A DNA stretch of 64,000 bases, taken from the NCBI RefSeq assembly GCF_900103455.1, contig NZ_FNHI01000002.1, forward strand, positions 1-64,000. The letters run 5' to 3'. Below, piece after piece: positions 15,267 to 62,602 of this stretch. The translations under genes were made by a program, and so were the position numbers. The number at the start of each line of letters is the position of its first letter. The stretch's first letter is position 1. The notes under the pieces are model-generated. The model did not search any database, was not told where the DNA came from, and saw only the letters and a list, made by a program, of their open reading frames with translations. This DNA comes from Streptomyces wuyuanensis. GTDB taxonomy: Bacteria; Actinomycetota; Actinomycetes; Streptomycetales; Streptomycetaceae.

Positions 15267-15331
15267 CTAGTCTGTCCGGCGGCGGATCGACCGGCTGGAA
15301 GTGTCCGAACGCCGAGGGGGAGGCCCGAAGG

Positions 15332-15613: not shown

Positions 15614-15626
15614 GCGGCCCGGCGGC

Positions 15627-46487: not shown

Positions 46488-49208
46488 CTACGGGGTGATG
46501 AGACGCCCGATGCCCAGGCCCGAGGGCGCGACCAGGGTGCTGACGCCGTAGAAGACGCCGGAGGAGGGCACGACACCCGACGTGCTGCTGTTGTCGAGTT
46601 GGAGGATCGTGCCGTTGTTGGCGTCCGTCCCGTCCGCGCCGAGGGCGAGATCGGCACGGCTGTAGCCGGACAGGTCGGTCAGGCTCACGGCGGCGCCGAG
46701 CCGCTCGTTCGGCGCGGTCGTACCGGGGACTCCGGCGGTGTCCAGGTGGTACGCGACCGAACCGGTGGCGGTCATGCCCGTGGCGGAGCCGCGGATCAGG
46801 AGGGCCTGGCCCGCGTTGGCCTGGTTGGCGCCGTCCCGCGTGAGGTCCTCGCCGGGCAGGCCGACGAGCACGTCGGCGTAACCGTCGAGGTTGACGTCTC
46901 CGACGGAGACCGAGGCGCCCATGGTGTCGCCGGACTCGTCGCTGTCGGGGATCCCGGTGCTGTTCTGGTTGAAGGTGGCACGGCCGTCCTTGGTCAGGCC
47001 CGTGGGCGAGCCGAGCACCTGGGCGACCGCGCCGCCCGTCGCGAGGTGGCCGGACTCCGTGGAGTTCGGCTGGCCGATGGCCAGGTCGTCGTAGCCGTCG
47101 CCGTTGATGTCGCCCACGGCGAGCGAGCGGCCGCCGCGCGGGTAGAGGACGCCGATCCGCTCCAGGCCGTTGGCCGTGCCCTTGAGCGCGAGGATCCGGC
47201 CGACACCCGACGAGTCGCGGTAGGTGATGGCGGCGTCGGCGTAGCCGTCGCCGTTGAAGTCGCCGCTTCCGGCGGAGGCGAAGGAGACCACCGAGGTGTT
47301 CGCGGTGTCGCTCAGCCAGCCGGCCTTGGTGGCGTAGGTGGGGTTCTTGGACTCGAACACCCACCAGCGGCCCGGCTTGCCGGGGGCGACGGACAGGACG
47401 TCCGCGGTGCCGTCGGCGTTGAAGTCGCCGACGGCGACGGCGGTGCCGAGCTTGTCACCGGTCACGCGGTAGGCGGGCGAGGTCATGTAGCTGACGCCGG
47501 AGGTGAGACCGGGGCCGTTGAGCACGGTCACCGAGCCGGTGTCGGTGTGCCCCGACTCGTCGTCCTCGCCGGGGGCGCCCACGACCAGGTCGGCGTAGCC
47601 GTCACCGTTGTAGTCGCCCCAGGCGGACGTGGTGCCGAACTGGTCGCCGCTCTCGTTGGCGCCGGGCACGTCCCCGCTGTTCTGGTCGATGGACGTGCGC
47701 ACCGTGGTGCTCGGCCCGTCGGTGGTGCCGGGCAGAACGGTGACGCGGCCGGCGCTGCTCGCGTACTTGGGCAGACCCGCGACCAGGTCGGTGATGCCGT
47801 CCCGGTTGTAGTCGGCCGTCGGGATCGCGGAGTTGCGGCCGGCGCCGGCGGCGAAGCCGCGGATCGAGGACAGCTTGGCGTACAGGTTCTTGCCGGGGCA
47901 GGCGGTCGCGAAGGCGTCGCGGTGCCCGGAGATCACCTTCATGGTGGCCTGCTGGCCGGTGACGTACTTGCCGGTGTTGCCCTGCGCGGTCAGGGTGACG
48001 CTGCCCTGCGGGTCACCGCCGTACTGGCCGAGCTTCCAGGCCGCGACCCGGGCCGCCGACTGCAGCGCGGCCTTCGTCGGCTGTCCGGCGGGCTTTCCGG
48101 TCGCCGGGTCGCCCTCGAAGTCGCCGAGGACGGCGATGCCGGTGGAGTAGCTGTTGAAGCCGTAGGTGTGCGCGCCCTTGACGGGAAGGTCGATACCGCC
48201 GCCGCGGCCCTCGAAGATCTGGCCGCACTTGTCGACCAGGAAGTTGTAGCCGAGGTCGTTCCAGTCCTCGGCGTTGATGTGGTACTCCATGATGCCGCGC
48301 ACCAGGGCCGCGGACTCGGCGCAGCTGTAGTTGTTGGCCCCGACGGTGTGGTGGATGAAGACCGCCTGGACCTTCTCGATGTACTCGGCGGGGTCCTCGA
48401 CCAGCGACTCGTCGGCCCCCCACTGGGCGCGGCTGATGATCGACGGCTGCCTGACCGTCGACGGCAGCGCAGCGGGCTTGGTCGGCGTGGGCGTGGGCGT
48501 CGCGGTCTCGGTCGGCGTGCCGGTCTCGGTCGGCGCCGCCGTGTCGCTCGGCGCGGCGCTGTCCGTCGGGGTCGCCGTGCCGCCCGGGGCGGCGGTGTCC
48601 GTCGGTGCCGGGGTGTCCGTCGCGGTCGCGCCGGGAGTCTCCTCCACGGCGAACGCCGCGCTGTCCATGTCCGCGTCCGCGGCGGGCGTGCTCAGCGCCG
48701 CGGCCGGAGCGGCGGGGTTCTCGGCCTCCGCCTTGCTCACGCCCGGGTCCACCATGTGCAGCTTCAGGCCCTTGGGGAGCGCCGCCCGGCCGTCCACGCG
48801 CACCTGCACGGCGGTGGAAGGGCCGACCCACAGCGGCTCGGACGCTCCGCGTCCGCCGTCGCTCTCGACCTCGTCCGGAGTGTCCGACTCCGCGAGGTCC
48901 ACGGACTGCCAGCCGGACCACCGCCCGGTCTCGGCACTGCGCGTCCGCACCTGCGCGACGATGCCCGCGACCTTCGCGGAGTCGTCGTCCCAGCCGATGC
49001 CGACCAGGGAGAACGGCTCCGTCGTCGTCGCCGGAAGGTCCCGGTCGGTGGCGCCGCCCTTGGCGAGAGCGAGTGAACGCAGCTCGGCGGCCCGCTCGTG
49101 CAGCCGCAGCGGCTGCGGCCTGTCCGACGGACTCGCCGTGGCCACGGTCACCACACCGGCACCACCCAGCACCACGGCGCCGAGCGTCAGCCACACCCGG
49201 CGCTTCAT
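46488..49208 (-). CDS. Secreted N-acetylmuramoyl-L-alanine amidase (PGRP) with long FG-GAP propeller
   Basis: This 906-residue paralogue of the protein at 43894 has the same order. A signal peptide comes first, then a beta-rich domain with the shared ATTTEPFSLVGIGWDDDSAK, a Thr/Pro/Ala linker (TDTPAPTDTAAPGGTATP), and the amidase domain (AVFIHHTVGANNYSCAES; SGHRDAFATACPG). At least six FG-GAP repeats follow (for example DYNGDGYADLVVGAPGED, DINGDGYDDLAIG, DVNLDGYADVLVGLPGED), enough for a full seven-bladed propeller. It should digest peptidoglycan and bind polymer or cell surface through the propeller. Confidence 0.92.
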   Translation of the reverse strand: MKRRVWLTLGAVVLGGAGVVTVATASPSDRPQPLRLHERAAELRSLALAKGGATDRDLPATTTEPFSLVGIGWDDDSAKVAGIVAQVRTRSAETGRWSGWQSVDLAESDTPDEVESDGGRGASEPLWVGPSTAVQVRVDGRAALPKGLKLHMVDPGVSKAEAENPAAPAAALSTPAADADMDSAAFAVEETPGATATDTPAPTDTAAPGGTATPTDSAAPSDTAAPTETGTPTETATPTPTPTKPAALPSTVRQPSIISRAQWGADESLVEDPAEYIEKVQAVFIHHTVGANNYSCAESAALVRGIMEYHINAEDWNDLGYNFLVDKCGQIFEGRGGGIDLPVKGAHTYGFNSYSTGIAVLGDFEGDPATGKPAGQPTKAALQSAARVAAWKLGQYGGDPQGSVTLTAQGNTGKYVTGQQATMKVISGHRDAFATACPGKNLYAKLSSIRGFAAGAGRNSAIPTADYNRDGITDLVAGLPKYASSAGRVTVLPGTTDGPSTTVRTSIDQNSGDVPGANESGDQFGTTSAWGDYNGDGYADLVVGAPGEDDESGHTDTGSVTVLNGPGLTSGVSYMTSPAYRVTGDKLGTAVAVGDFNADGTADVLSVAPGKPGRWWVFESKNPTYATKAGWLSDTANTSVVSFASAGSGDFNGDGYADAAITYRDSSGVGRILALKGTANGLERIGVLYPRGGRSLAVGDINGDGYDDLAIGQPNSTESGHLATGGAVAQVLGSPTGLTKDGRATFNQNSTGIPDSDESGDTMGASVSVGDVNLDGYADVLVGLPGEDLTRDGANQANAGQALLIRGSATGMTATGSVAYHLDTAGVPGTTAPNERLGAAVSLTDLSGYSRADLALGADGTDANNGTILQLDNSSTSGVVPSSGVFYGVSTLVAPSGLGIGRLITP

Positions 49209-49479
49209 GCTCAATGGTCGGTACGCATGTGACGTACGCGGACTCAAATGCCCCACCCCTTGGAGATTCACTCGCGGCTCATCCGTCTCATGGATGGCCT
49301 GGTTCACACAGCGATGGCGGATGCCGAACCGTCACGGGAAACCATGGGATGTGACACGAGTCACAGCATGATCGTCGTGCGTGCTCTCGCTGGTCGTGCA
49401 GTGTGCTCGCCGGTCGTGCGGTGCGCGTAGCGCGTTGCGTGGGTCTGTGTCGCACGGGCCCGCCTCGCACGGGTCCGGG

Positions 49480-50034
49480 TCAGTCCTCGCCCGCTCCGGC
49501 GGCGGGGAGCTCGCCCGAACACGTCGCCCGCCCGAACTCGCCCATGGCCGTGGCGCGCTGTACGTGCTGCCCGCGGACGGCGAGCGTGCACGAGGCCCGG
49601 CCGCCCTTCTTGTCGAGGACGATGGCCACGCTCGGGGCCTGGCCCAGAGGGACCTCGACCGACTTCTTCCAGGGCAGGGTGACGCCCTTCTCGACCGTGG
49701 CCGTGCCGGCCTCGCTGCGCGCGAGATACGCGATCTCGGCCGTGCCCGTCCCTGTGACCTCGTACGTCACTTCCGCCGTCGGGACGGCGCGGGGCTTCGG
49801 CTCCTCCTTCGTGTTGAGCACGCCGTAGCCGACGAGCCCGCCGCAGGCGAGCAGTACGGCCGCGGCGATCAGCAGGCCGCGCCGGTCGGGAGAGCCCTCC
49901 GTGGCCTCGCCCTCCGGCGCGGTGTTCTCGGCCGGCGCGAGTCCGGAGAGTTCGGCGAGTTCCTTCGTCGGCGTTTCCTCCGCCGGTGATTCCTTCTCCG
50001 GCGCCGTACGTTCCGGGAGTTCATTGGACGACAT
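49480..50034 (-). CDS. MmpS-like single-pass membrane protein
   Basis: This 184-residue protein has a long charged, Glu/Pro-rich cytosolic N-terminus and one helix (RGLLIAAAVLLACGGLVGYG near 52-72). An extracytoplasmic beta domain beginning VTYEVTGTGTAEIAYLARSE follows, with two cysteines (RASCTLAV and GRATCSGEL) likely to pair. This layout resembles mycobacterial MmpS and related beta-sandwich membrane proteins. No MmpL or other transporter is adjacent. The role is unknown. Confidence 0.72.
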   Translation of the reverse strand: MSSNELPERTAPEKESPAEETPTKELAELSGLAPAENTAPEGEATEGSPDRRGLLIAAAVLLACGGLVGYGVLNTKEEPKPRAVPTAEVTYEVTGTGTAEIAYLARSEAGTATVEKGVTLPWKKSVEVPLGQAPSVAIVLDKKGGRASCTLAVRGQHVQRATAMGEFGRATCSGELPAAGAGED

Positions 50035-50357
50035 GAGTGGACCGGCTTTCGGTGATTGGCTGACGTGGAACCGGGGGTTTATACACCATGCCGCCGATCC
50101 GGCGCGAGCGAGCGGATGAAGCGGGCGAACCGCCCCTCCTGTGGCCTGCTGATTGTCCAGTTATGTCCGCGCAGTTGACAGGGCATCAGCTGCTTGATTA
50201 GAAACCCGCCGCGATCTCCGTGAAAAAGAATGCGCCACTCCTTTTTCGCGGTTGCTTCGCCATGCTCAAAGCCGGGTGGAATTCTCCGCTCCGGCTCGTT
50301 CGGCGTGCCCATTTCGCATGCGGCGACCTGGGTTCGCCGATGCGGAAAGGTATTGAG
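50035..50357. other. AT-richer leader region ahead of the Rhs gene
   Basis: No gene is visible. The region is less GC-rich than its neighbours, with an apparent sigma-70-type promoter at 50175-50204 and a small hairpin GAAAAAG/CTTTTTC at 50222-50247. The toxin reading frame stays open from 50220, but its N-terminal residues upstream of 50340 do not look like a signal peptide. Confidence 0.55.
50175..50204 (+). promoter_or_regulatory. Likely sigma-70-type promoter of the Rhs gene
   Basis: TTGACA at 50175-50180 and TAGAAA at 50199-50204 are separated by 18 bases. The -35 box is a perfect consensus, rare in this GC-rich DNA. Transcription would start near 50212, about 145 bases before the toxin start. 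Confidence 0.6.
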
Positions 50358-53300
50358 GTGAAAGTTCCGTACAGGAGATCTCTCTCCTGTCTTGTCGTCT
50401 CGGCGGTAGCGAGCACGCTATTGCCGCAGATCGCCTACGCGGCCCCCGCATCACCGTCGAGCGACGACGACAAGGGCGTCATCGACACGATTGCGGGCTG
50501 GTTCTCCGACGACGAAGCAGGGGCGGACAAGCCCCCCGTCGGCGGGAAGCTGGAGATACCCAGTCGGCAGAAACTGCCGAAGGGCAAGGTGCTCCCGCAG
50601 CCGAAGCGGGTCAAGGAGCTGACGCAGCGGCGTACGCCGCAGGCGAGGTTCTGGCAGATGTCGGACGGGCGCGTCGAGGCGGAGCTGTCGGCCTCGCCGG
50701 AGTCGTACCGGTCGGAGGCGGACGGCTCGTGGAAGCCGATCGACACGACGGTGACGGCGTCGAAGGCCAAGGGGTTCGCCTACGCCAACACGACGAACGC
50801 GGGCCGCAGCTGGTTTGGTTCGGACGCGTCGAAGCTGGTGCGGTTCGAGACGGCCGCCGGCCAGGCGGTGACCCTGGGGCTGGAGGGCGCGGCCAAGGGC
50901 GTCGCGCCGACCGCCAAGGGTGACACGGTCACCTACAAGGATCTGGCCGCGGGCGCGGACGTCTCGTACGAGGTGGGCGCGGGCCGGGTGAAGGAGAACA
51001 TCACCCTCGCCGAACGGCCCGCGAAGCCGGTGCGGTTCGTGTTCACGCTGGACGCGGGCCCGCTGGAGCCGAAGGAGCGGGGCGACGGGTCGATCGCCCT
51101 GTTCGGCGAGGATCCTGCCAACCCGGTGCTGGTGATCCCGCCGGCGTTCATGACGGACGCGAAGAAGGACAAGGCGTCCCCGTACGGCACGTCCTACAGC
51201 CCCAAGGTCTCGCAGGAGCTGAGCCGTCACGGCAAGCAGTGGCGGCTGACGGTGACGCCGGACGCGACGTGGCTGGCGGCTCCGGAGCGGCAGTACCCGG
51301 TGGTGATCGACCCGACGATCACGATCGCGCCGTCGCCGACGGAGTCGCAGGACGTGATGGTCCGCTCGGACGCGCCGACGACGAACTTCAACAGCACCTG
51401 GGACATGTCGGCGGGCAAGACCAGCAGCACGGGCATCGCCCGTTCGCTGATCAAGTTCCCGCTGGACGAGATCCCGGCCGGCTCGAAGATCGACACGGCG
51501 CAGCTGTCGCTGTACTTCGACCAGGTCCACACCACGGGTTCCACGAACGTGGACGTGGAGGTCCGCCGGGCAACGGGCGCCTGGGACGAGACCACTGCGA
51601 CGTGGAACAACACCAGTGCGCTGGCAGGTGGTGAGCAGTCCGCGACCACGGTCCTGATGGACGACGGCGACACCGGTACGGCCGCGGTCGGCGAGTGGCC
51701 GCGGGTCAGCGGCACGGGTCACGCGAGCGACTACGCCTACAACAAGAACACCGCGACCGGTGAGTCCTACACCTGGCAGCCGAACATCGTCGACGCCGCG
51801 GACTACAAGGTCGAGGTCCACACCCCGGTGCAGGCGGACGGCGCCACGGCCGCCCCGTACACGGTGACCTCGGCCGAGCCGACCGCGAACTTCACGGTCA
51901 ACCAGGCCACCGGCACGACCGGCTGGCGCCAGCTCGGCACCACGCAGATCGACTTCGCCAAGGGCAACGCCGGCAAGATCGTCCTCGGTGACACGGGCGA
52001 CTCGACCAAGCGGACCATCGCCGACGGCGTCCGGCTGGTCAACCCGGCCCAGGTCCGCAAGGACATCGGCGAGTACAACCAGTGGCACAACTTCCGGGTC
52101 GGCGACACCGTCCAGAAGTGGGTCTCGGGCACGGCGACGAACCACGGCTTCGTCGTCAAGGCCGTCGACGAGTCCGGCACCGCACCGCTCGGCGGTCCCC
52201 AGTACCAGGCCGGGGACTACGACTACGGTGGCGAGACGTCCACGATCCCGCGCCTGACGGTCACCTTCGGCAAGACCGGCACCTCGCTGAACTCGCCGAC
52301 CGTCGTGCACGGCACCGGCCCCGAGCTGTCCTGGGCCGCGTACAACAACACCACCGGTGACGCGGACCTCGACATCGCCGAGTACCAGCTGCACCGTTCC
52401 ACGCAGCAGGTCTTCACGCCTTCCGCCGCGACCCTGATCGCGCCGATCGCCAAGACGGCCACCACGTACACGGACACCACGGCCGTCCCGACGCCGGACT
52501 CCAGCAGCGCGGAGATCGGGAAGTCGTACTACTACCAGATCGCGGTCAAGACGGCCGACGGCCAGGTCCTCGGCTCGCCGACCCGCGTGGTGGGCATCCC
52601 GAAGGCCGGCCGCACGATGCGGCTGATCCAGGCGGGCGCGGGCGTCACGGACACCACCCTGTCCTCGCTCAAGCCGACGACGAACCTCAACACCATCGAG
52701 CAGGGCACTGTCGGGCAGGACTGGCTGACCGTCGGCAACAACTCCGCCACCTACGGCAAGACCCGCTCGGTGATCAAGTGGCCCACGACCACGATCCCCG
52801 CCACCGCCACGGTGCTGGAAAGCCGGGTCTTCCTGTGGTCCACGATGACGACACGGGACACCGCGTCCAAGGCCCAGTACAACCTGCACGGGCTGACCCG
52901 GGACTTCACCGAGACCCAGGCCACCTGGAACAACGCGAACTCCACCACCGCGTGGACCACCGCCGGCGGTGACCACTCCTCGGTCGTCTCCGACTACGTG
53001 CCCGCGTTCAACACGGACCTCGGCCGCCACTGGTGGGACGCGACCTCCCTCACCCAGGGCTGGGTCAAGACGCCCAGCAGCAACAAGGGCACCCTGCTCA
53101 AGCTGAAGGACGAGACGACGGCCGGCCCGCAGGAGCGCTCCATCTTCCTGTCCGCCGCCGCGCCCGACCCGCAGCTCCGTCCCCTGCTGCGCGTGATCTA
53201 CGTCGACTCCACGACGGAGGACACGTACTACGCGCCGCAGACGCCGTCCCGGAAGGCCACGGACTCCACGTACACCGAGGACGTCACGGTCACCAACACC

Positions 53301-56300
53301 ACAGGGAACGCGTGGGCCGCCGGTGAGCGCGAGCTGTCCTACACGTGGAAGCTGCCCGACGGCACCGACGCCACCACGGCCGGCAACCAGCTCAAGACGC
53401 CGATCCCGGCCCTGCTGCCGGGCAAGTCGGCGACGATCCAGGCGCAGGTCAAGACCCCGTCCGACTCGGCCGCCGGCAACAAGCGGGACGAGTACGCACT
53501 GGGCTGGGACGTGCGCAAGGTCTCCGACGGCACCTGGTTGTCCGCCGGGACCGGCGGCATCGCGCCGCTGAAGCAGAACGTGGCCGTCGAGGAACCGACC
53601 TCCGACCAGCTCGGTCTGGAGAAGTTCTATGCCTACACGGGCAAGAACACCGGTGCCGGCTCGACGGTCATGAACAACCTGGCCTCCGGCAACAGCGTCT
53701 GGTCGTACAACGCGTTCAACAACCCGGGCCGCGGGCTCAACACCTTCGCCCGCTTCGCATACAACAGCCTCGACACCTCGGACACGGTCTCGGGCCATGG
53801 CTGGTCGGCGCAGATCTCCGGCCCGATCAGGCTGGGCGCGCCGCTGGACTTCCACCCCAACCCGAACCCGACGGAGATCCGTCTCCCGGACGGTGACGGC
53901 ACCACGCACGTCTTCCGCAAGCAGGAGGACGGCACGTGGAAGGCTCCCGCGGGCGTCCACTACAAGGTCACGATGAAGTCGGGCCTGGACTGCAAGCCCA
54001 ACAAGGACCCGGTCCCGGACGCCTGGACGCTGACGCGTCCGGACGGGACGCGGTTCCTGTTCGGCTGCGACGGCTACATGACGTCTGCCATCGACAAGAA
54101 CGGCAACACGCAGACGTACACGTACGAGGAGCGCAAGTCCAACAACAAGCCGACCAAGTTCCTCACGTACATCACCGACCCGGCCGGCCGTCAGTCGCTG
54201 GCCGTCGACTACTGGACCAAGGGCCAGTCCGGCTACCAGTACGTCAATGACTCGGGCGTGCTGACCACCGACAGCGGCAGCCTGAACAACTCCAAGATCT
54301 ACGACCACGTGAGGTCCGTGACGGACATCTCGGGCCGCAAGATCGAGTTCTACTACACCACCAAGGGCCTGCTCGGTCAGTTCACCGACGGCGTGGGTTC
54401 GTCCCAGCCCAAGGTGTTCAAGTTCACCTACGACGCCACGCAGGGGAACAAGAACGTCAAGCTGGTCGAGGTCACCGACCCGCGCGGCAACCACACACAG
54501 CTGGGGTACTACTTCCCGAGGGAAGGTGACGACCCGAAGTACCACTGGCGCACGCAGACCATCACCGACCGTCTGCAGGGCACCGCGGACTTCACCTACG
54601 CGGCCAACGCGACCAACCCTGAGTTCACCGACACCAAGGTCATCGACGCCGAGAACCACGCGACCGACTATGTGACGGACAACCTCGGCCGCCCCGTCCA
54701 GACGACCAACGCCAAGTCTGAGACCACGAAGATGTCGTGGGACGCGGACCACAACGTCACGTACCTGGAGGAGGCCAACGGCGCCAAGACCGCGTTCTGC
54801 TACGACCAGAAGACGGGCTACCCGCTCTGGAAGCGCGACGCGGAGCAGAACAAGTCCGGAGTTCCGCCTCCCGGCGACTGTGCCCCGGGCACATACCCGG
54901 AGAACTCGGCCCGGTACACGTACCAGACACGTGTTGACGGCTACTCGGCCGACCTGTTCACCAAGACCTCTCCCGAGGGCCGCAAGTGGCAGTTCGGCTA
55001 CGACACGTTCGGCAACCTGAAGACGGTCACCGACCCGAAGGGCGTCGCCACGCCTGCCGCCGGCGACTACACCACGTCGTACGAGTACGACGCCCACGGC
55101 CAGCTCACCAAGGCGATCGACCCCAACGGCAACCCGACGGCCTCCAGCGACTTCGGCCCCACTGGCTACCCGGCGAAGATCATTGACGCTCTGGGCAAGT
55201 CGAGCGACTTCGTCTATGACGAACGTGGTCAGGTCCGTGAGGTCACCGACGCCCTCGGCAAGAAGGTCACCCAGACCTACGACACCTTCGGACGTCCGAA
55301 GGAGAGCAAGGTCCCGAAGAACCAGGCCGCGGGCGAGTACATCACGACCCCCGCCCCGGTCTTCGACGCCAACGACAACGTGACCACGTCGACGGCGCCG
55401 AACGGTGCGGTCTCCACCGCCGTCTACGACGCCGCGGACCAGATCGTCTCGGCCACGGCTCCGAAGGACACGGCCACCTCGCCCGAGCGGCGCACGGCCT
55501 ACACCTACGACAAGGTCGGCAACGTCAAGACCGTCACCGAGCCGAAGGGCACGCTGAAGACCTCGGACGCCACCGACTACGTCACCACCAACCACTACGA
55601 CGCGATCTACCAGCTCACCTCGGCCGTCAACGCCGCGGGCAACAAGATCACCTACGAGTTCGACAACGTCGGCAACGCGGTCAAGGTCGTCGACCCGAAG
55701 AAGAACGCGACCCCGGACACGACCGACCACACGTCCAAAATGGTGTACGACCTGAACCACCGGGTCACCACCTTCACGGACGCGGCGGGCAAGTCCAGTT
55801 CGCGCAGCTACGACAAGGACGGTCTCGTCCTCACGTCCACAGACCCCGCGAACAGCACCACGACGTACACGTACGACGAGCGGGGCAAGCAGGCCGAGGT
55901 CAAGGTCCCGTACGACGCGACGACGTTCCGCGTCACCAAGTACGAGTACGACCAGGCCGGCAACACCACCAAGGTGATCACCCCCAAGGGCGCCGCGACG
56001 GCCACCGCCGACGACTTCGTGTCACGCACCGAGTACGACGTCCTGAACCGTCCGGTCAAGCAGTACCAGCCGTACGACCCGACCGACCCGGCGCACAGCG
56101 ACCCGAACGTCTACACGCAGACGGTGTACGACGCCGTCGGCCGGGTCGCGCGGCAGTCGCTGCCGCCGTCGAAGGGCCAAACGGTCCGAAACGACACGGT
56201 CTTCGAGTACTACGACAACGGCTGGACGAAGAAGTCCACCGACGCGTGGGACATCGCCACGACGTACGACTACACCGATCTCGGGTACCAGAAGGCCCGC

Positions 56301-59072
56301 ACGCTCACGTCCGCGGGCGGCTCCTCGGACCGCACGATGACGCAGTCGTACTACCCCGACGGCAAACTCAAGTCCAAGTCGGACGACGGTGTGCCGGTGG
56401 GCAAGTCGGTCGTGCTCGTCGACAACTCCGACAGCCAGCACACCGCCGCCACGGGCACCTGGGCGACCGGTGACCGCACGGGGCAGCAGGGCTATGACCA
56501 CCGCACGCATGCGGCCGGGAGCGGCACGGACGCCTTCACCTGGACGCTCAACATCCCGAAGGACGGCACGTACACCGCGTACGTGAAGTACCCGCAGGTG
56601 ACGGGCGCGGCGACGGCTGCGAAGTACACGCTGGCGCAAGGTGCGACCACGCATCCGGCGGTCTCCAAGGACCAGACGGCAGCCGCCGGCACCTGGGTGT
56701 CGCTGGGCTCCTACAGCCTGAAGCAGGGCAACGACGCCACGCTGAAGCTGGAGCAGAGCAGCTCGGGCACAGCGGTGGCCGACGGGGTCAAGCTGGTGCG
56801 CGACACGGCCGGTGAGACGGACACCGAGAAGCGGACCTTCGCGTACGCCTACGACGTCAACGGAAACCTGACGTCGATCGACGACACGTCCTCGGGCGCG
56901 AAGATCGACGCGTACACGGTCGTCTACGACGGGCTGAACCAGGTCCAGAAGGTGACCGAGGCGCTCGCGGGCCAGGAGAAGAAGGTCACGTCGTACACGT
57001 ACGACGCCAACGGCCAGGCCGACACGGTCACTCACCCGACCCAGTACGCCAAGTACTCCTACGACCTGCGCGAGCTGGTCAAGACGATCTCGGTCGGGAA
57101 GTCTGCCACGGACGCCTCGCCGAAGGTCACCTCGTACACGTTCAACGACCGCGGCCAGCGGCTGAAGGAGACCAAGGCCAACGGAAACACCGTCGATTAC
57201 ACGTACCTGCTCGGCGGTGACCTGAGGTCGACCACGGAGAAGAAGGGCTCCGGCACGCTCGTCTCCTCGCACACCTACGCCTACGACCTCAACGGCAGCA
57301 AGGCGCAGGACATCGCGAAGAAGATGAACGCCGACAACCATGCGGCGTACCTCGAATCCACGACCGACTACACCTACGACCCGGCGGGCCGGCTCACCGA
57401 GTCGGTCAAGACCGGCAACGGCGCGGGCACCGAGAAGTACGTCCACGACGACAACGCCAACGTCGTCTCGCAGACGGTCGACAGTGTCACGACCAACTTC
57501 GAGTACGACCGCAACCGACTGCTGCGGGCCACCACATCGGGCTCGGCGGCCACGTACAACTACGACCCGTTCGGCCGGCAGGAGTCCGTCACCTCGGGCG
57601 GTCAGGTCATCGAGCGAAGCGTGTACGACGGCTTCGACCATGTCGTGGAGTCCCAGAAGCGGGACGAGAGCGGCGCGTTGAAGACGACGACGTACACCTT
57701 CGATCCGCTCGACCGCACCGCCTCGAAGACGGCCGAGGGCAAGACGACCGACTTCAACTACCTCGGCATGTCCGGCGAGGTGCTGAGCGAGGAAGTCGCC
57801 GGGGCGCTGACGAAGTCGTACCAGTACAGCCCGTGGGGCGAGCGTCTGTCCCAGGTCAAGCACAACACCGACGGTACGGGCGAGGACGGCTACTACGGCT
57901 ACAACGCCCACACCGACGTCGAGACGCTGACCGACAAGGACGGCGACACCAAGGCGACGTACGGCTACACCGCCTACGGCTCCGACGACAAGACGGAGTT
58001 CACCGGCATCGACAAGCCGGACGCCGCTGACCCGACGAAGCAGGAGTACAACCCGTACCGGTTCAACGCGAAGCGCTGGGACGCCCAGTCCGGCACGTAT
58101 GACATGGGCTTCCGGGACTACAGCCCCGGTCTCAACCGCTTCACCACCCGGGACATGTACAACGGCGCCCTCGCCGACATGAACCTGGGTGCGGACCCGT
58201 TCACCGGCAATCGCTACGCGTTCGCGGGCGGCAATCCGACCAGCTTCGTCGAGCTGGACGGCCATCTCGCGTTCGCCATCCCGGCCCTGTGGTGGGCGGG
58301 CGCCGCTCTGGCCACGGCCCTGTACGCGGCGACGCCGGAGGGTCAGCAGAACCTGTCCGACGCGGCCACGGCGCTCGGCCAGCTGATGCCGACCGCCGAT
58401 TCCGTGACCTCGTCCGGCTCGTCGAGCGGGACGAGCACCGCGCCGACTCCGTCGCCCTCTCCGGGCCCGGCGCCCGGTCCGCCGGGCGGCGGTAGCGGTT
58501 TCAACGGCAAGTTCCACACCGGGGCGGCGGTCTCCATGATCGTCCGAATCTTCTCGGGCATGAGGGCGGCCGGGCCGGACGAGGACAAGTCCCCGCAGCG
58601 CAAGGCGATCGACAATGCGGACAACGAGAGCCGGAGGTGCCACGAGTCCTCCGGTCCGAGCCTGGTGTGGAACTCCCCGGTGGACAGTCAGGGCCGGGCC
58701 ACCGGCGGGTTCGCCTGTCTGGACCCGTCGCAGCCGGCGGATCTGGACAACACCGGTCCACAGAATCCGCGGGGCTGGGACCTCCAGGACGAGTCCGACG
58801 ACTGGAACCGGGCTCACCTGATCGCCCGTGAGTTCGGCGGCAGCCACTTCCGGGAGAACATCGTCCCGACCACCATGTACCAGAACCAGAAGGAGGGCAT
58901 GCGGACCGTCGAGTACGAGATCGAGCGGCGGCTCAAGCTCGGCGAGAAGGTCTACTACCAGTCCATCCCGGTCTACGTGCCTGGATACGTGAATCCGATC
59001 GGCGTGCACATGCACGTTTCGAGCTCGTCGGGTTCGTTCTCCCGGCTGGTAGCGTCCGGGGTCCACGACTGA
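50358..59072 (+). CDS. Giant secreted Rhs-repeat polymorphic toxin with C-terminal DNA/RNA nonspecific endonuclease
   Basis: This protein of about 2,904 residues begins with a signal peptide ending QIAYAAPA. DNRLRE-type beta domains lie near residues 330-420 and 755-950. Golvesin-like carbohydrate-binding-type domains lie near 435-560 and 2015-2150. YD/Rhs repeats (YDPFGRQESV, YDAAGR-like) run from about 1180 to 2540. The Rhs core YRFNAKRWDAQSGTYDMGFR is followed by YSPGLNRFTTRDMYNG and NRYAFAGGNPTSFVELDG. A hydrophobic segment (AFAIPALWWAGAALATALYA) and linker follow, then a variable C-terminus with DDWNRAHLIAREFGGSHFRE and VPTTMYQNQKEGMRTVEYEI, typical of the Endonuclease_NS_2 fold with its catalytic His. 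The GTG at 50358 has GGAAAGG before it; the ATG at 50340 is an alternative. The toxin is probably released by core cleavage and used between kin or competitors. The downstream SUKH gene should protect the producer. Confidence 0.92.
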   Translation: MKVPYRRSLSCLVVSAVASTLLPQIAYAAPASPSSDDDKGVIDTIAGWFSDDEAGADKPPVGGKLEIPSRQKLPKGKVLPQPKRVKELTQRRTPQARFWQMSDGRVEAELSASPESYRSEADGSWKPIDTTVTASKAKGFAYANTTNAGRSWFGSDASKLVRFETAAGQAVTLGLEGAAKGVAPTAKGDTVTYKDLAAGADVSYEVGAGRVKENITLAERPAKPVRFVFTLDAGPLEPKERGDGSIALFGEDPANPVLVIPPAFMTDAKKDKASPYGTSYSPKVSQELSRHGKQWRLTVTPDATWLAAPERQYPVVIDPTITIAPSPTESQDVMVRSDAPTTNFNSTWDMSAGKTSSTGIARSLIKFPLDEIPAGSKIDTAQLSLYFDQVHTTGSTNVDVEVRRATGAWDETTATWNNTSALAGGEQSATTVLMDDGDTGTAAVGEWPRVSGTGHASDYAYNKNTATGESYTWQPNIVDAADYKVEVHTPVQADGATAAPYTVTSAEPTANFTVNQATGTTGWRQLGTTQIDFAKGNAGKIVLGDTGDSTKRTIADGVRLVNPAQVRKDIGEYNQWHNFRVGDTVQKWVSGTATNHGFVVKAVDESGTAPLGGPQYQAGDYDYGGETSTIPRLTVTFGKTGTSLNSPTVVHGTGPELSWAAYNNTTGDADLDIAEYQLHRSTQQVFTPSAATLIAPIAKTATTYTDTTAVPTPDSSSAEIGKSYYYQIAVKTADGQVLGSPTRVVGIPKAGRTMRLIQAGAGVTDTTLSSLKPTTNLNTIEQGTVGQDWLTVGNNSATYGKTRSVIKWPTTTIPATATVLESRVFLWSTMTTRDTASKAQYNLHGLTRDFTETQATWNNANSTTAWTTAGGDHSSVVSDYVPAFNTDLGRHWWDATSLTQGWVKTPSSNKGTLLKLKDETTAGPQERSIFLSAAAPDPQLRPLLRVIYVDSTTEDTYYAPQTPSRKATDSTYTEDVTVTNTTGNAWAAGERELSYTWKLPDGTDATTAGNQLKTPIPALLPGKSATIQAQVKTPSDSAAGNKRDEYALGWDVRKVSDGTWLSAGTGGIAPLKQNVAVEEPTSDQLGLEKFYAYTGKNTGAGSTVMNNLASGNSVWSYNAFNNPGRGLNTFARFAYNSLDTSDTVSGHGWSAQISGPIRLGAPLDFHPNPNPTEIRLPDGDGTTHVFRKQEDGTWKAPAGVHYKVTMKSGLDCKPNKDPVPDAWTLTRPDGTRFLFGCDGYMTSAIDKNGNTQTYTYEERKSNNKPTKFLTYITDPAGRQSLAVDYWTKGQSGYQYVNDSGVLTTDSGSLNNSKIYDHVRSVTDISGRKIEFYYTTKGLLGQFTDGVGSSQPKVFKFTYDATQGNKNVKLVEVTDPRGNHTQLGYYFPREGDDPKYHWRTQTITDRLQGTADFTYAANATNPEFTDTKVIDAENHATDYVTDNLGRPVQTTNAKSETTKMSWDADHNVTYLEEANGAKTAFCYDQKTGYPLWKRDAEQNKSGVPPPGDCAPGTYPENSARYTYQTRVDGYSADLFTKTSPEGRKWQFGYDTFGNLKTVTDPKGVATPAAGDYTTSYEYDAHGQLTKAIDPNGNPTASSDFGPTGYPAKIIDALGKSSDFVYDERGQVREVTDALGKKVTQTYDTFGRPKESKVPKNQAAGEYITTPAPVFDANDNVTTSTAPNGAVSTAVYDAADQIVSATAPKDTATSPERRTAYTYDKVGNVKTVTEPKGTLKTSDATDYVTTNHYDAIYQLTSAVNAAGNKITYEFDNVGNAVKVVDPKKNATPDTTDHTSKMVYDLNHRVTTFTDAAGKSSSRSYDKDGLVLTSTDPANSTTTYTYDERGKQAEVKVPYDATTFRVTKYEYDQAGNTTKVITPKGAATATADDFVSRTEYDVLNRPVKQYQPYDPTDPAHSDPNVYTQTVYDAVGRVARQSLPPSKGQTVRNDTVFEYYDNGWTKKSTDAWDIATTYDYTDLGYQKARTLTSAGGSSDRTMTQSYYPDGKLKSKSDDGVPVGKSVVLVDNSDSQHTAATGTWATGDRTGQQGYDHRTHAAGSGTDAFTWTLNIPKDGTYTAYVKYPQVTGAATAAKYTLAQGATTHPAVSKDQTAAAGTWVSLGSYSLKQGNDATLKLEQSSSGTAVADGVKLVRDTAGETDTEKRTFAYAYDVNGNLTSIDDTSSGAKIDAYTVVYDGLNQVQKVTEALAGQEKKVTSYTYDANGQADTVTHPTQYAKYSYDLRELVKTISVGKSATDASPKVTSYTFNDRGQRLKETKANGNTVDYTYLLGGDLRSTTEKKGSGTLVSSHTYAYDLNGSKAQDIAKKMNADNHAAYLESTTDYTYDPAGRLTESVKTGNGAGTEKYVHDDNANVVSQTVDSVTTNFEYDRNRLLRATTSGSAATYNYDPFGRQESVTSGGQVIERSVYDGFDHVVESQKRDESGALKTTTYTFDPLDRTASKTAEGKTTDFNYLGMSGEVLSEEVAGALTKSYQYSPWGERLSQVKHNTDGTGEDGYYGYNAHTDVETLTDKDGDTKATYGYTAYGSDDKTEFTGIDKPDAADPTKQEYNPYRFNAKRWDAQSGTYDMGFRDYSPGLNRFTTRDMYNGALADMNLGADPFTGNRYAFAGGNPTSFVELDGHLAFAIPALWWAGAALATALYAATPEGQQNLSDAATALGQLMPTADSVTSSGSSSGTSTAPTPSPSPGPAPGPPGGGSGFNGKFHTGAAVSMIVRIFSGMRAAGPDEDKSPQRKAIDNADNESRRCHESSGPSLVWNSPVDSQGRATGGFACLDPSQPADLDNTGPQNPRGWDLQDESDDWNRAHLIAREFGGSHFRENIVPTTMYQNQKEGMRTVEYEIERRLKLGEKVYYQSIPVYVPGYVNPIGVHMHVSSSSGSFSRLVASGVHD

Positions 59073-59150: not shown

Positions 59151-60113
59151 ATGAATCTTCACGATGTCGTCCGACTTCTCGGGCTCACGGCTCCGACGTG
59201 CGCGGAGGGAGAGGCGTCCGGGCAGGTCGTGCCCGGTGACTTCGAGCTGCTGCTGCGGGCGGTGCCCGCGGGCGTGGTCGCGGGGTCCGTGATCCTGAAC
59301 CGCGCCGACGTCCCGGTGCGCTCGGTGAAGGACTTCGCGGCGGAGGCGGAGCTGCGTCTCGGAGACATGCGCGAGGCCCTGACCTCCCGCGAGCAGGCGC
59401 TCCCGGCGTCGCTCCACCCGGAGCCCGGGGGCCTGGTGCCCTGGGGCCGGACCGCGCGCGACGGGGTGCTGCTGTGGGACACCGCGGCGCCGGACACCGA
59501 GGAATGGACGACGGTCCTGGCGGACAAGGACTTCCAGCTCTGGCTGGACCTTCCCTTCTCCGCTTCCGAGTTCGTCGCACGGACGCTGATGGCGCGCGAG
59601 GAGGGCACTCCCGCGTTCGAGAGTTTCGAGGAGTACGAGTCGGGTTCGTTCTGGAAGGTCGCGGACGACATGCGCGCGACCGCCATGGCGATGGCGAACC
59701 GGGACGTCCGGGCAGTGGACGAGCTCGTCACAAGACTGCGGGCGCTTGGCGTCCCCGGTGTCCGGGAGTACGCGCAGGAGCGCGTCGCCCGGGCACTGGA
59801 GGCGGCCCGGGAGTCCTCGCTGGCGTACCCGGAGGAGTATCTGGCGGTGATGCGGGAGTTCCCCGGCGGGGTGATCGCCGGGATGAAGGTGTTCCCCGTA
59901 GACCGGGTCGGCTGGTTGACCGAGGACCCGGTGTTCCTGCAGTGGGGCGAGTTGGAGGGGCGGGCGTTCGGGTGGCTCGCGCTCGGCGGTGATCCGGCGG
60001 AATGGCGCGTCGCGTACGTCGAGCCCGACGGCACGTCCCTGACGCATCTGCACGACCAGACCTTCGCCTCGTTCCTGCGCCGCCGACTGCGGGGGAACAA
60101 CTCGCTGTTCTGA
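59151..60113 (+). CDS. Tandem SUKH (SMI1/KNR4)-type immunity protein
   Basis: This 320-residue protein carries two SUKH-like halves. The first has LLRAVPAGVVAGSVIL, then LVPWGRTARDGVLLWDTAAP and DFQLWLDLPFSASEFVARTL. The second half, after about residue 190, has YPEEYLAVMREFPGGVIAGM and GRAFGWLALGGDPAEWRVAY. SUKH proteins are the commonest immunity family beside nuclease-ended polymorphic toxins. It starts 78 bases after the Rhs stop on the same strand, which makes it the cognate immunity protein for the endonuclease domain. Its two-domain layout is unusual and may reflect repeated recruitment. Confidence 0.83.
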   Translation: MNLHDVVRLLGLTAPTCAEGEASGQVVPGDFELLLRAVPAGVVAGSVILNRADVPVRSVKDFAAEAELRLGDMREALTSREQALPASLHPEPGGLVPWGRTARDGVLLWDTAAPDTEEWTTVLADKDFQLWLDLPFSASEFVARTLMAREEGTPAFESFEEYESGSFWKVADDMRATAMAMANRDVRAVDELVTRLRALGVPGVREYAQERVARALEAARESSLAYPEEYLAVMREFPGGVIAGMKVFPVDRVGWLTEDPVFLQWGELEGRAFGWLALGGDPAEWRVAYVEPDGTSLTHLHDQTFASFLRRRLRGNNSLF

Positions 60114-60502: not shown

Positions 60503-61081
60503 ATGAACCTGACGGAGTGGGCGCGGGCGCAGGGGGTGAACCCGCATGCGGGATATCGCTGGTTTCATGAGGGCACCTTGCCGGTACCCGCGCGCCGGGT
60601 GGGGCCGCGCACGATCCTGGTGAACATCGAAGCGAACGCCTCAGCCAACGTGATCGGTGGTGTGGGCTTGTACGCCGGCGTCTCCTCGCACGATCAGAAG
60701 CCCGACCTGGAGCGTCAGACCGCACGCTTGTCGGTGTGGGCCTCTCAGGCCGGTCACCGGGTCGTGCGGATCGAGTCCGGGATCGCTTCGGGTATGAACG
60801 GCTGCCGTTCCAAGGCGAAGCGGCTACTGGCAGACCCGAAGGTGACCACCGTGGTGGTGGAGCACAAGGACATGCTTGGCCGGATGAATGTCGAACTGGT
60901 CGAAGCGGCCTTGTCCACATCGGGTCGTCGTCTCGTCGTCCTTGATGACGGCGAAGTGGAAGACGACCTGGTGCGGGACATGGTGGAGGTGCTGACCTCG
61001 TTCTGTGCTCGCCTCTACGGGCGACGCTCGGCGAAGAACCGGGCCCGCAAGGCCCTTGAGGCGGCGGCTGCCGATGGCTGA
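60503..61081 (+). CDS. tnpA: IS607-type serine recombinase, probably inactive
   Basis: This 192-residue protein has the MerR-like DNA-binding N-terminus (NLTEWARAQGVNPHAGYRWF) and the resolvase catalytic domain with its nucleophile Ser in the VSSHDQKPDLERQ motif. In the family the preceding motif is YARVSS, where Arg is catalytic; here it is YAGVSS. A second conserved motif, HRDRLGRM, is HKDMLGRM, so another arginine is missing. Both substitutions should abolish or strongly reduce strand exchange. The coiled-coil end SFCARLYGRRSAKNRARKAL is normal. The ATG at 60503 is the most likely start; GTG at 60485 and 60488 are alternatives. Confidence 0.85.
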   Translation: MNLTEWARAQGVNPHAGYRWFHEGTLPVPARRVGPRTILVNIEANASANVIGGVGLYAGVSSHDQKPDLERQTARLSVWASQAGHRVVRIESGIASGMNGCRSKAKRLLADPKVTTVVVEHKDMLGRMNVELVEAALSTSGRRLVVLDDGEVEDDLVRDMVEVLTSFCARLYGRRSAKNRARKALEAAAADG

Positions 61082-61921
61082 GAAGAAGCTCCGGAAGTTC
61101 GAGGACCCTTTCGTCGCCCTGGGCCCGTCCGGGGTGGCGATACGCGACCGCCTCAAGCACCCCACCGACGTGGACGACAAGGTGTTGCGCCTGGTCGGCG
61201 AACACCTCGGACGCCTCGCCTCCCTGGACCTCAAAGCCCGGTGTGCTGACGGTCTGGACCACAACAACGACACGTGGGCCGCCCGCAAGCAGGGCCTGAC
61301 CGCGAAGTCGTCGTCCCGGTGGGCCGGTGCGCTCACCAAGGCCACCCACGACCAGTGGGCGCTGTCCCGGCGCTGCCAGCTCGCCCACATCCAAGGGCTT
61401 GAGGCCGGTGTCCGCACCCTCATGCACCGCCTGTCCCAGCCCATCGGCGAGAAGGGAACCAAGCGCGCCCCGGGCGGCTACCGCTCCAAGGGCGAGTGGT
61501 TCCGCAAGTCGCGCCGCCTGCATGTGCTGGAGGACCGCCTGGACGTTGCGCGCGTGGAGCGGGAGGCGGGTGTCGTGCACGTCGTGCGCGGCGGCAGGCG
61601 TCTGATCAACAACCGTCACAACCTGGACGCCGCGCAGCTCACCGAGCCTGAGTGGCGCCAGCGCTGGGAGGCGGAACGCTGGTTCCTCGCCGCTGACGGC
61701 GAGTCCGGCAAGCGGTACGGGAACGAGACGATCCGCGTCACCCCGGACGGCGAGGTCAGCATCAAGCTGCCCACACCGCTCGCGCACCTGGCCAACGCCG
61801 AGCACGGCCGGTACGTCCTCACCTCCAAGGTCGCCTTCGCGCACCCGACGCGCAGATCAGACACGCCATCAGTCAACTGCTGCGCTGGGCCGACCGGTGC
61901 GGCGTGTCGTCGTCGCCCTGA
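61074..61921 (+). pseudogene. tnpB: TnpB of the IS607 element, internally deleted
   Basis: The first 260 residues match the N-terminal half of IS607-type TnpB (FRKSRRLHVLEDRLDVARVE, INNRHNLDAAQLTEPEWRQR, TPLAHLANAEHGRYVLTSKV). After AFAH the frame breaks: DAQIRHAISQLLRWADRCGV, a conserved TnpB block just ahead of the second RuvC motif, appears in another frame at 61847-61906 and then stops. The middle RuvC domain and the zinc ribbon with the catalytic acids are gone. The protein cannot act as an RNA-guided nuclease. Confidence 0.85.
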
Positions 61922-62510
61922 CCGATGGACAGTCCCATGTACGCCGGGTCCGGATGGGGGAAGTGGTAGGAGCCCGCTGTCACAGTCCCCGTCGCTGCGC
62001 GGGCCAGTACCGTTCCGTCGGCGGGGCGAGGACCAGCCACTCCTCGGTGGTGCCCTGCCCCGGCTCTGCGTGAGTGCGTATGTGGGCCCACAGGAGTTTG
62101 CCGTCGGAGGTGAAGGCCGCCGAGCCGTGGTCGCCATGACCGTGGCCGTGATCGTCGGCGTACTCCTCGAACGAGGCGTGGGCCTCCTCGCAGACGGTGG
62201 CGGACCAGCAGCCGTGCGGGATCTCCCAGCGGACGGCGCCGCCCGCGTCCACGGCCCGCAACGCGTGCACACCGGCGAACACGGCGACATCACGCCCGGG
62301 CGAGACCGCCACCGAGCCGTACGCGCGAGGCCAGGGGGCGGGGAATCGCACCTCCGCCCCGTCCCCGTCCAGGTCACGGACGGCCAACTCGGCGTCCCCG
62401 CGCTGCACCAGCACCTTGCGTCCGGCCCAGTGCAGCACCTGCGGGGCGTCCGCCGACTCGGGGTCCTAGGGGGCGGCGACGGTGGCGACGAGTTGAGCAG
62501 TGACGGTCAT
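61905..62510 (-). pseudogene. 5' part of a WD40/PQQ-like gene broken by nonsense, frameshift and the IS607 remnant
   Basis: From an ATG at 62510 with GGAGA ahead of it, the frame reads MTVTAQLVATVAAP and then meets an in-frame TAG at 62466-62468. It continues open as DPESADAPQVLHWAGRKVLV through DLDGDGAEVRFPAP and SWSATVCEEA-like repeat text to EEWLVL near 62030. There a one-base indel shifts it to DGTVLARAATGTVTAGSYHF and PHPDPAYMGLSIGQGDDD, which runs into TnpB sequence. Repeated beta-strand and aspartate patterns suggest a propeller repeat protein. Three separate lesions show long-term decay. Confidence 0.7.
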
Positions 62511-62602
62511 TGAGGTCTCCGGGGTCGGAAGAGCTCGCGGCACGGCTCGCCCCACGCTACGCCGCTACGCCGACGGCTCGTCGAAGAGAGGGAGGAGCGG
62601 CC

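What the first reader, a model, noticed from the sequence alone, without database searches (positions are those of the whole stretch)
50358..59072. Giant Rhs toxin carrying golvesin-like and DNRLRE domains inside the shell
The N-terminal half and part of the repeat shell include two golvesin-like and two DNRLRE-type domains, associated with carbohydrate or surface binding, while the C-terminus is an NS_2 endonuclease. A Sec-type signal rather than a type VI or PAAR module is used. A hydrophobic segment sits between the Rhs core and the toxin. This is an unusual delivery design for a Gram-positive mycelial organism.
Basis: partly seen in the sequence, partly recalled or inferred. Interest (0 to 1): 0.65.

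Follow-up and report, generated by a model that had tools for sequence, protein, structure and literature searches.

The report
Giant secreted Streptomyces nuclease toxin family
This is a very large secreted protein of Streptomyces that most likely carries a DNA/RNA-cutting toxin for use against rival bacteria, with a protective gene beside it; the general design is known from other Gram-positive bacteria, but this Streptomyces version has sugar-binding add-ons and a membrane-protein partner gene that deserve testing.

Summary
ORF 50358-59072 encodes a Sec-type signal, two DNRLRE/CBM96 domains, two golvesin domains, an Rhs/YD shell and core, a hydrophobic linker and a C-terminal Endonuclea_NS_2 nuclease. 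One golvesin domain is nested in DNRLRE-1, the other is inserted in the shell sequence; both DNRLRE domains are N-terminal to the shell. Among 79 fetched Streptomyces relatives (the closest of 231 found) the protein is conserved to residue about 2684, then switches among unrelated toxins; two relatives 95% identical up to there carry different ones. Of 41 NS_2 tips, 40 are followed by a SUKH-type immunity gene, against 3 of 36 other tips; the window's looks like two SUKH domains. Motif residues are intact. This is a Gram-positive WapA-like Rhs polymorphic toxin with a Tox-NucA tip and Imm-SUKH immunity; Sec-exported Rhs toxins are an established Gram-positive design. Distinctive: a divergent MmpS-like membrane gene (49480-50034, minus) that tracks the shell, not the toxin: upstream in 51 of 59 full-length relatives, present in 30 of 30 strong-shell genomes against 2 of 169 others. 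I propose it as an export or display partner. No activity was tested.

The parts
50358..59072 (+). WapA-like Rhs polymorphic toxin gene (2904 aa from GTG 50358)
50358..50441 (+). Sec-type signal peptide ending ...AYA (cleavage site inferred)
   Evidence: a similar hydrophobic stretch is visible in the 40 N-termini printed (of 60 full-length proteins, window included), L154 and L191 most diverged; hydropathy; no signal-peptide predictor was available
51342..52172 (+). DNRLRE/CBM96 domain 1, split by golvesin-1 (outer limits approximate)
   Evidence: CBM96 E 2.7e-13, Disaggr_repeat 2 stretches; DNRLRE
51651..52040 (+). golvesin domain 1, nested in DNRLRE-1
   Evidence: Golvesin_C E 5.7e-20
52647..53195 (+). 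DNRLRE domain 2
   Evidence: NCBIfam NF033679 best stretch 810-992
53676..58265 (+). Rhs/YD-repeat shell, from a DUF6531-like start (match below Pfam's cut-off) to the Rhs-associated core
   Evidence: AlphaFold model of residues 1490-2684 matches solved Rhs cores, Foldseek E 1.5e-41
56412..56801 (+). golvesin domain 2, inserted in the shell sequence
   Evidence: Golvesin_C best stretch 2065-2194; present in 55 of 58 full-length relatives
58014..58265 (+). Rhs-associated core; D2645, D2653, D2659 100% and D2680 97% conserved in 79 sequences
58263..58334 (+). hydrophobic pre-toxin segment (variable module)
58680..59009 (+). Endonuclea_NS_2 (Tox-NucA) nuclease domain; H2866, N2880, N2889, E2898 invariant in 13 NS_2 tips aligned
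59151..60113 (+). putative immunity gene, two tandem SUKH (SMI1/KNR4)-like domains
49480..50034 (-). divergent MmpS-like single-pass membrane protein, partner of the shell

Best explanation
A Streptomyces branch of the Gram-positive WapA-like Rhs polymorphic toxins. Proposed steps: (1) Sec export through the conserved N-terminal signal (inferred from sequence). (2) The N-terminal DNRLRE/CBM96 and golvesin domains, and the golvesin domain on the shell, bind surface glycans of producer or target (inferred from homology). (3) The Rhs barrel encloses the C-terminal module and the Rhs core cuts it free by aspartyl autoproteolysis (inferred from fold and conserved aspartates). (4) The pre-toxin segment helps the tip enter the target cell (inferred; it is an exchangeable module). 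(5) The NS_2 metal-dependent nuclease degrades nucleic acid in the cytoplasm (inferred from intact motif residues). (6) The two-domain SUKH-like protein encoded directly downstream neutralises it in kin (inferred from linkage and fold). (7) The divergent MmpS-like membrane protein serves the shell in export, folding or display (inferred from linkage). Shown by computation: architecture, tip polymorphism, immunity linkage, shell fold and partner linkage.
For: Domains. Identity to 58 full-length relatives is 0.50-0.88 per 50-residue block over residues 51-2650, then 0.10-0.23 from 2701 on. 77 usable tips form 16 C-terminal clusters by single linkage, 8 of them singletons, two of which (L196, L197) look damaged or shortened. 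L170 and L192 are 95.0% identical over residues 47-2684 but fall in different tip clusters. NS_2 tips followed by a SUKH-like ORF: 40 of 41, against 3 of 36 other tips (Fisher 3.6e-17); with a profile trained on 10 of the loci, 30 of the 31 held-out NS_2 loci against 3 of 36. Independent genus scan: besides the window, 9 of 29 other tip matches have an immunity match downstream on the same strand within 1.5 kb. Invariant H, N, N, E in 13 NS_2 tips agree with the published Tox-NucA motif 'GH, N, N, E', for which Imm-SUKH is a listed partner (PMC3482391, passages). Shell fold: Foldseek E 1.5e-41 to type VI Rhs cores. Immunity fold: 3d5p SMI1/KNR4 Z 10.9, rmsd 3.9, 118 aligned. Tip dN/dS about 0.21-0.45 against five relatives. 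Shortened shell-tip cassettes lie near full or larger genes in G135 and G096.
Against: No activity, secretion, cleavage or competition was tested. The window's immunity protein has no Pfam match, its Foldseek search gave no match with E <= 0.001, and its N-terminal half has only a weak structural match (8bd1_B, Z 4.7, rmsd 4.2, 104 aligned). L188 has an NS_2-cluster tip but another kind of gene downstream. In G121 (L149), whose tip is the closest of the genus-scan hits (41%), the gene directly downstream is DUF5959. Linkage counts are on related sequences, not corrected for phylogeny, and the 79 loci are the closest of 231. The C-terminal plug of the shell model is of low confidence (model residues 1119-1195 under pLDDT 50). 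How Gram-positive Rhs toxins enter target cells is not known (PMC12704120, passage).
Confidence: 0.85

Rival explanations
1. A wall or extracellular adhesion/morphogenesis protein (teneurin-like) whose C-terminal domain is not a working antibacterial toxin.
For: Teneurins share the shell fold; two glycan-type domain families fill much of the N-terminal half.
Against: Tips swap between unrelated toxin families on closely related shells, with tip-specific downstream genes; nuclease motif residues invariant; tip dN/dS 0.21-0.45.
Confidence: 0.06
2. A secreted scavenging or phage-defence nuclease that acts on DNA outside the cell.
For: PDB relatives of the tip include an extracellular streptococcal DNase (5fgw, E 6e-4); Sec-type signal.
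Against: Other tips on the same shell are of other kinds: deaminase-type, Ntox44, CDI EC869-like. The immunity protein shows no obvious signal peptide, although one 19-residue stretch reaches hydropathy 1.76. No PADLOC hit for tip or immunity.
Confidence: 0.05
3. A toxin aimed at eukaryotes (insects, amoebae, fungi) rather than bacteria.
For: Insecticidal Tc toxins share the shell fold; the neighbouring amidase has a sub-threshold TcdB_toxin_midN match (E 0.035).
Against: No clear Tc partner among the few neighbours scanned. An immunity gene with nearly every NS_2 tip implies danger to the producer's own kind.
Confidence: 0.04
4. For the MmpS-like gene: merely fixed synteny at one chromosomal site, with no functional tie to the toxin.
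For: It is divergent, not co-transcribed. It was not found upstream of 8 of 59 full-length relatives, among them L150, the closest in the shell-end scan. Strong copies in G080, G104 and G142 have no Rhs match in the DNA fetched around them. Some genomes hold more shell copies than MmpS-like copies.
Against: Of 199 genomes, 30 of 30 with a strong shell match have a strong copy and 2 of 169 without. A fixed site alone would leave it in genomes lacking the toxin, as seen for the nearby amidase family, found in 194 of 199.
Confidence: 0.3

Closest known systems
WapA of Streptococcus suis and Bacillus subtilis (PMC12704120, passages)
   Same: Sec signal, DUF6531/Rhs shell, variable C-terminal toxin, neighbouring immunity gene, giant size; a DNRLRE domain in the S. 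suis protein
   Different: No LysM domain was hit in the window protein; golvesin domains are present; the S. suis partner genes are SrtB and a SecF-like protein, here an MmpS-like protein on the opposite strand
Tox-NucA / Imm-SUKH and RHS polymorphic toxins predicted by Zhang et al. 2012 (PMC3482391, passages)
   Same: GH, N, N, E nuclease motif; SUKH immunity; RHS repeats; Sec export; binding domains embedded among RHS repeats; a Streptomyces RHS toxin (with PrsW and Ntox9) is mentioned
   Different: Immunity protein is a two-domain form without a Pfam match; golvesin and the MmpS-like partner did not appear in the passages seen
Type VI Rhs effectors (e.g. Photorhabdus Rhs1, PMC8636562, passages)
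   Same: Barrel fold and C-terminal core with conserved aspartates
   Different: No PAAR domain hit; Sec-type signal; the core lacks the exact DPLGL pair
Streptomyces umbrella toxins (PMC11062931, passages)
   Same: Large secreted Streptomyces polymorphic toxins with glycan-binding parts and immunity
   Different: ALF-repeat multi-protein particles with a Tat signal and lectins on separate proteins; the word Rhs does not occur in that paper's main text

Membership tests
Polymorphic toxin system | Conserved trafficking part with exchangeable C-terminal toxins | tested here: met
   Identity falls at residue about 2685; 16 tip clusters in 77, 8 of them singletons; 95% identical carriers with different tips
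Polymorphic toxin system | Tip-specific candidate immunity gene directly downstream | tested here: met
   40 of 41 NS_2 tips vs 3 of 36 others; held-out test 30 of 31 vs 3 of 36
Polymorphic toxin system | Toxicity and protection | not testable with these tools
   needs an assay
Gram-positive WapA-type Rhs toxin | Sec signal, surface/wall-binding N-terminus, Rhs shell, C-terminal toxin | tested here: met
   signal judged by eye and hydropathy only
Gram-positive WapA-type Rhs toxin | SrtB and SecF-like upstream partners (S. suis type; not known to be required of WapA in general) | tested here: inconclusive
   The two nearest upstream genes scanned are MmpS-like and an FG-GAP amidase; no search for sortase or SecF was made
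Tox-NucA (Endonuclea_NS_2) | Conserved GH, N, N, E residues | tested here: met
   H2866, N2880, N2889, E2898 invariant in 13 tips that I chose from 43; the residue before H is A in the window, G in most
Tox-NucA (Endonuclea_NS_2) | Nuclease activity | not testable with these tools
   needs an assay
Imm-SUKH | SMI1/KNR4 fold | tested here: met
   C-terminal half: 3d5p_A Z 10.9, rmsd 3.9, 118 aligned; N-terminal half only 8bd1_B Z 4.7, rmsd 4.2, 104 aligned
Imm-SUKH | Sequence kinship to SUKH proteins | tested here: inconclusive
   No Pfam hit for the window protein at E <= 1; of 7 single-domain relatives scanned all match SUKH_6 or SMI1_KNR4 at E <= 0.042, 3 above a curated cut-off. A profile of 10 relatives finds the window protein at E 1.3e-20
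Type VI Rhs effector | PAAR-type N-terminus | tested here: not met
Rhs core aspartyl autoprotease | Conserved aspartate pair at the C-terminal core | tested here: inconclusive
   D2659 100%, D2680 97% of 79, but the DPLGL form is not kept and cleavage was not tested
MmpS (Mycobact_memb) | One TM helix plus MmpS domain | tested here: inconclusive
   A hydrophobic stretch (19-residue hydropathy 1.95 or more) in all 51 found; PF05423 at E <= 0.05 in 20 of 23, window copy at 20.3 bits against a cut-off of 21; profile finds MmpS5 at E 0.0021

The most novel reading that the evidence does not exclude
Streptomyces carries its own, experimentally unstudied class of Sec-exported giant Rhs toxins, in which a dedicated MmpS-like membrane protein works with the shell whatever toxin it bears, as an export, folding or surface-presentation factor, and glycan-binding golvesin domains mounted on the toxin cage help choose the target.
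Probability: 0.4. Interest if true: 0.6.

Novelty: new variant of a known kind. Interest (0 to 1): 0.42.

Why it matters
[quoted passage not shown] A family with a strong shell match in 30 of 199 sampled genomes of the genus, and with a membrane gene tied to it, offers a second protein weapon to test. It also gives a genetic handle on the open question of how Gram-positive bacteria export, display and deliver Rhs proteins of about 300 kDa.

Tried and rejected
Considered and rejected: a type VI or Tc-type system (no PAAR hit and no Tc partner above cut-off); the nearby FG-GAP N-acetylmuramoyl-L-alanine amidase as a dedicated partner (family in 194 of 199 genomes; match in 24 of 59 loci, where the upstream flank held was only about 3 kb); a phage-defence gene (no PADLOC hit for the three proteins scanned); golvesin as a CBM84 member (the CBM84 structure named in PMC10049358, passages, is from another enzyme; the golvesin match is to the C-terminal part of a xanthan lyase, 6f2p).

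Led nowhere: two genus scans with long queries failed on the machine and were replaced by shorter queries. Foldseek on the immunity model gave no match with E <= 0.001; the second-look aligner did find SMI1/KNR4 chains. Model coordinates are not in the Python box (file list), so whether golvesin-2 points outward from the barrel was not measured. Paper searches for 'MmpS, Rhs, toxin' (8 of 23 papers listed), 'WapA, Rhs, immunity, Streptomyces' (4 of 4), 'polymorphic toxin, Rhs, Streptomyces, immunity, secreted' (15 of 20), 'Streptomyces, RHS repeat, toxin, immunity, competition' (6 of 6) and 'Streptomyces, polymorphic toxin, umbrella, Rhs' (6 of 28) listed no paper recognisable from title or abstract start as a study of this family; papers were read only in the passages cited.

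Rows dropped and choices made: L158, L179 and L182 (cut short or N-masked tips) were dropped from the 80 tips. The identity profile used 58 full-length relatives, the neighbour count 59. Genome sets for a strong shell (E < 1e-100) and a strong MmpS-like gene (E <= 1e-20) were read by me from the listings. The adjacency table of 29 pairs in 27 genomes was typed from those listings and holds pairs on the same contig only; G096, G142 and G156 had no such pair, and in genomes with several shells the neighbouring copy was taken. Eight of 37 strong MmpS-like rows are outside the table: G156:C1, G096:C389, G096:C92, G017:C557, G006:C6, G080, G104, G142:C23; the DNA around the last three was fetched and held no Rhs match, the other five were not checked.

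Full report
Observation. The window is bases 1-64000 of a 555,841-base contig (C20) of an 8.04 Mb genome. The 79 named relatives kept are all Streptomyces, so I take the host as Streptomyces. The ORF 50220-59072 is open over 2950 codons. Domains: CBM96/DNRLRE-1 split by golvesin-1, DNRLRE-2, YD repeats with golvesin-2 inserted at 2065-2194, Rhs-associated core to 2682, a hydrophobic stretch, Endonuclea_NS_2 at 2821-2930.

Polymorphic toxin test. The genome scan with the last 488 residues of the shell found 231 relatives; the best 80 were kept, as 79 loci, so the sample leans to close relatives. Against 58 full-length relatives, identity to the window is 0.50-0.88 per 50-residue block over residues 51-2650 and 0.10-0.23 from 2701 on. 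Of 80 tips (window included) 77 were usable and form 16 C-terminal clusters by single linkage; the NS_2 cluster holds 41 and 8 are singletons, of which L196 and L197 look damaged or shortened. L170 and L192 are 95.0% identical over residues 47-2684 yet fall in different tip clusters. The window gene is itself a mosaic: 78-95% identical to L157 in 150-residue blocks up to residue 1546 and 66-84% in the blocks from 1547 to 2596, but to L150 45-62% up to 1096 and 71-91% from there through the tip.

Toxin. In 13 NS_2 tips that I chose from the 43, H2866, N2880, N2889 and E2898 are invariant, in agreement with the published Tox-NucA motif 'GH, N, N, E' (PMC3482391, passages). Pfam's Endonuclease_NS also matches, below its cut-off (E 0.0018). 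By sequence the PDB gives streptodornase D (E 6e-4) and weakly EssD (E 0.43). Tip dN/dS against five relatives is about 0.21-0.45, so the tip is maintained. No activity was tested.

Immunity. Of the 41 NS_2 tips, 40 are followed on the same strand by an ORF of one SUKH-like cluster; 3 of 36 other tips (L169, L189, L192) also have one (Fisher 3.6e-17, not corrected for relatedness). With a profile trained on 10 of the loci, 30 of the 31 held-out NS_2 loci score against 3 of 36 others. The exception, L188, has another kind of gene downstream. In a separate scan of 199 genomes of the genus, the tip matched in 27 genomes (30 places) and the immunity sequence in 61; besides the window, 9 of the 29 other tip places have an immunity match downstream on the same strand within 1.5 kb (G030, G033, G040, G084, G088, G096, G131, G181, G182). 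Seven single-domain relatives scanned match SUKH_6 or SMI1_KNR4 at E <= 0.042, three above a curated cut-off. The window and five relatives (L150-L153, L172) have a version of about 320 aa. Its model (mean pLDDT 83.8) shows the helix-sheet pattern twice; the C-terminal half matches SMI1/KNR4 3d5p (Z 10.9, rmsd 3.9, 118 aligned), the N-terminal half only weakly the RhsP immunity protein 8bd1_B (Z 4.7, rmsd 4.2, 104 aligned). Against: no Pfam hit for the window protein, no Foldseek match with E <= 0.001, and a DUF5959 gene directly after the G121 tip.

Shell and accessory domains. The model of residues 1490-2684 (mean pLDDT 76.6, C-terminal plug low) matches solved Rhs cores, teneurins and TcB/TcC (best Foldseek E 1.5e-41). 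Aspartates 2645, 2653 and 2659 are 100% and 2680 is 97% conserved in 79 sequences, which allows but does not show autocleavage of the kind described for type VI Rhs proteins (PMC8636562, passages). Golvesin-2 is present in 55 of 58 full-length relatives and missing or partly missing in L218, L223 and L224; two loci of the genome set lack it too (L133, L139). The shell stretch carrying golvesin-2 matched at E <= 1e-20 in 23 of 197 genomes of the order, two of them from other genera; G688 matched only in two pieces without the middle. In 396 genomes of the phylum 51 had some match at E <= 0.001, but only the window covered the full query; the others listed are partial, to golvesin or to YD repeats. 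Golvesin occurs elsewhere joined to NlpC/P60 wall hydrolases (3 of 3 proteins scanned) and is related to the C-terminal part of a Paenibacillus xanthan lyase (6f2p, E 2.1e-11 alone, 7e-24 as a five-sequence profile). With CBM96 for the DNRLRE domain, polysaccharide binding is the best guess for both. Lectin-type domains embedded among RHS repeats were described in 2012 (PMC3482391, passage).

Pre-toxin segment. The first 60 residues of the 77 tips form 17 clusters that do not follow the toxin clusters: one pre-toxin type occurs with five toxin clusters (four if the shortened L197 is left out), and the NS_2 cluster occurs with eight pre-toxin types. A strongly hydrophobic stretch (hydropathy 1.6 or more) occurs in 11 of 41 NS_2 tips and 6 of 36 others; the window's is moderate (1.44 in that measure). 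This looks like an exchangeable entry module, in the spirit of CdiA-CT entry domains (recalled, not tested).

Membrane partner. Directly upstream and divergent lies a 184-aa gene (49480-50034, minus) with one hydrophobic segment and a weak MmpS-like domain (PF05423 in 20 of 23 relatives at E <= 0.05; profile to MmpS5 structures E 0.0021). It was found upstream in 51 of 59 full-length relatives, over many toxin types, and not upstream of L150, L154, L184, L186, L198, L208, L218 and L219. Across 199 genomes, the 30 with a strong shell match all have a strong copy, against 2 of 169 others (G080, G104; Fisher 1.4e-33, not corrected for relatedness). In the 29 same-contig pairs tabulated (27 of the 30 genomes) it lies 6.4-7.2 kb from the shell-end fragment, that is, just in front of the toxin gene; in G142 the copy is elsewhere, and in G096 and G156 no same-contig pair was seen. 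Because it follows the shell and not the tip, I propose a role in export, folding or display rather than immunity. In S. suis the WapA loci carry SrtB and SecF-like partners that contribute to killing (PMC12704120, passages). A role for the MmpS-like gene is inference.

Verdict. A new variant of a known kind: a Streptomyces WapA-like Rhs polymorphic toxin with a Tox-NucA tip and Imm-SUKH immunity. The golvesin decoration and the MmpS-like partner are its distinctive parts.

Noticed in passing
49480-50034 (-): MmpS-like single-pass membrane gene, divergent from and genetically tied to the Rhs shell (51 of 59 loci; 30 of 30 strong-shell genomes vs 2 of 169 others).
   Followed up: partly
46488-49307 (-): FG-GAP repeat N-acetylmuramoyl-L-alanine amidase next to the MmpS-like gene; its family is widespread in the genus (194 of 199 genomes).
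   Followed up: partly
60515-61042 (+): IS607-family transposase (NCBIfam match) shortly downstream of the immunity gene, followed by what looks like a shortened TnpB remnant in the frame 61005-62513 (no Pfam match; the name TnpB is recalled from the look of the sequence).
   Followed up: no
L115:11360-12154 and 15319-17331; L109: Shortened shell-end-plus-tip cassettes downstream of or near larger Rhs genes (genomes G135 and G096), like orphan tips of other Rhs and CDI loci.
   Followed up: partly
L149:9557-10024 (+): A DUF5959 gene directly after an NS_2 tip, a candidate second immunity family for this toxin.
   Followed up: no
L188, downstream of the tip: An NS_2-cluster tip followed by a 321-codon ORF of another kind instead of a SUKH gene, possibly another immunity type.
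   Followed up: no
L232, L233, L234: Golvesin domain joined to NlpC/P60 wall hydrolases in other actinobacteria, suggesting a wall- or glycan-binding role for golvesin.
   Followed up: partly
L163 and L198 (Streptomyces sp. NBC_01446): Two Rhs genes of this family within about 40 kb on one chromosome, with different tips.
   Followed up: no
G000:C30:72140-72445 and G000:C35:91112-91279: Two further weak matches to the immunity protein elsewhere in the window's own genome, possibly orphan immunity genes.
   Followed up: no
L039, L040 (G135, G073): Relatives (69% and 63%) of the two-domain immunity protein over its full length; no NS_2 tip match was listed next to them, so possibly orphan immunity genes.
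   Followed up: no
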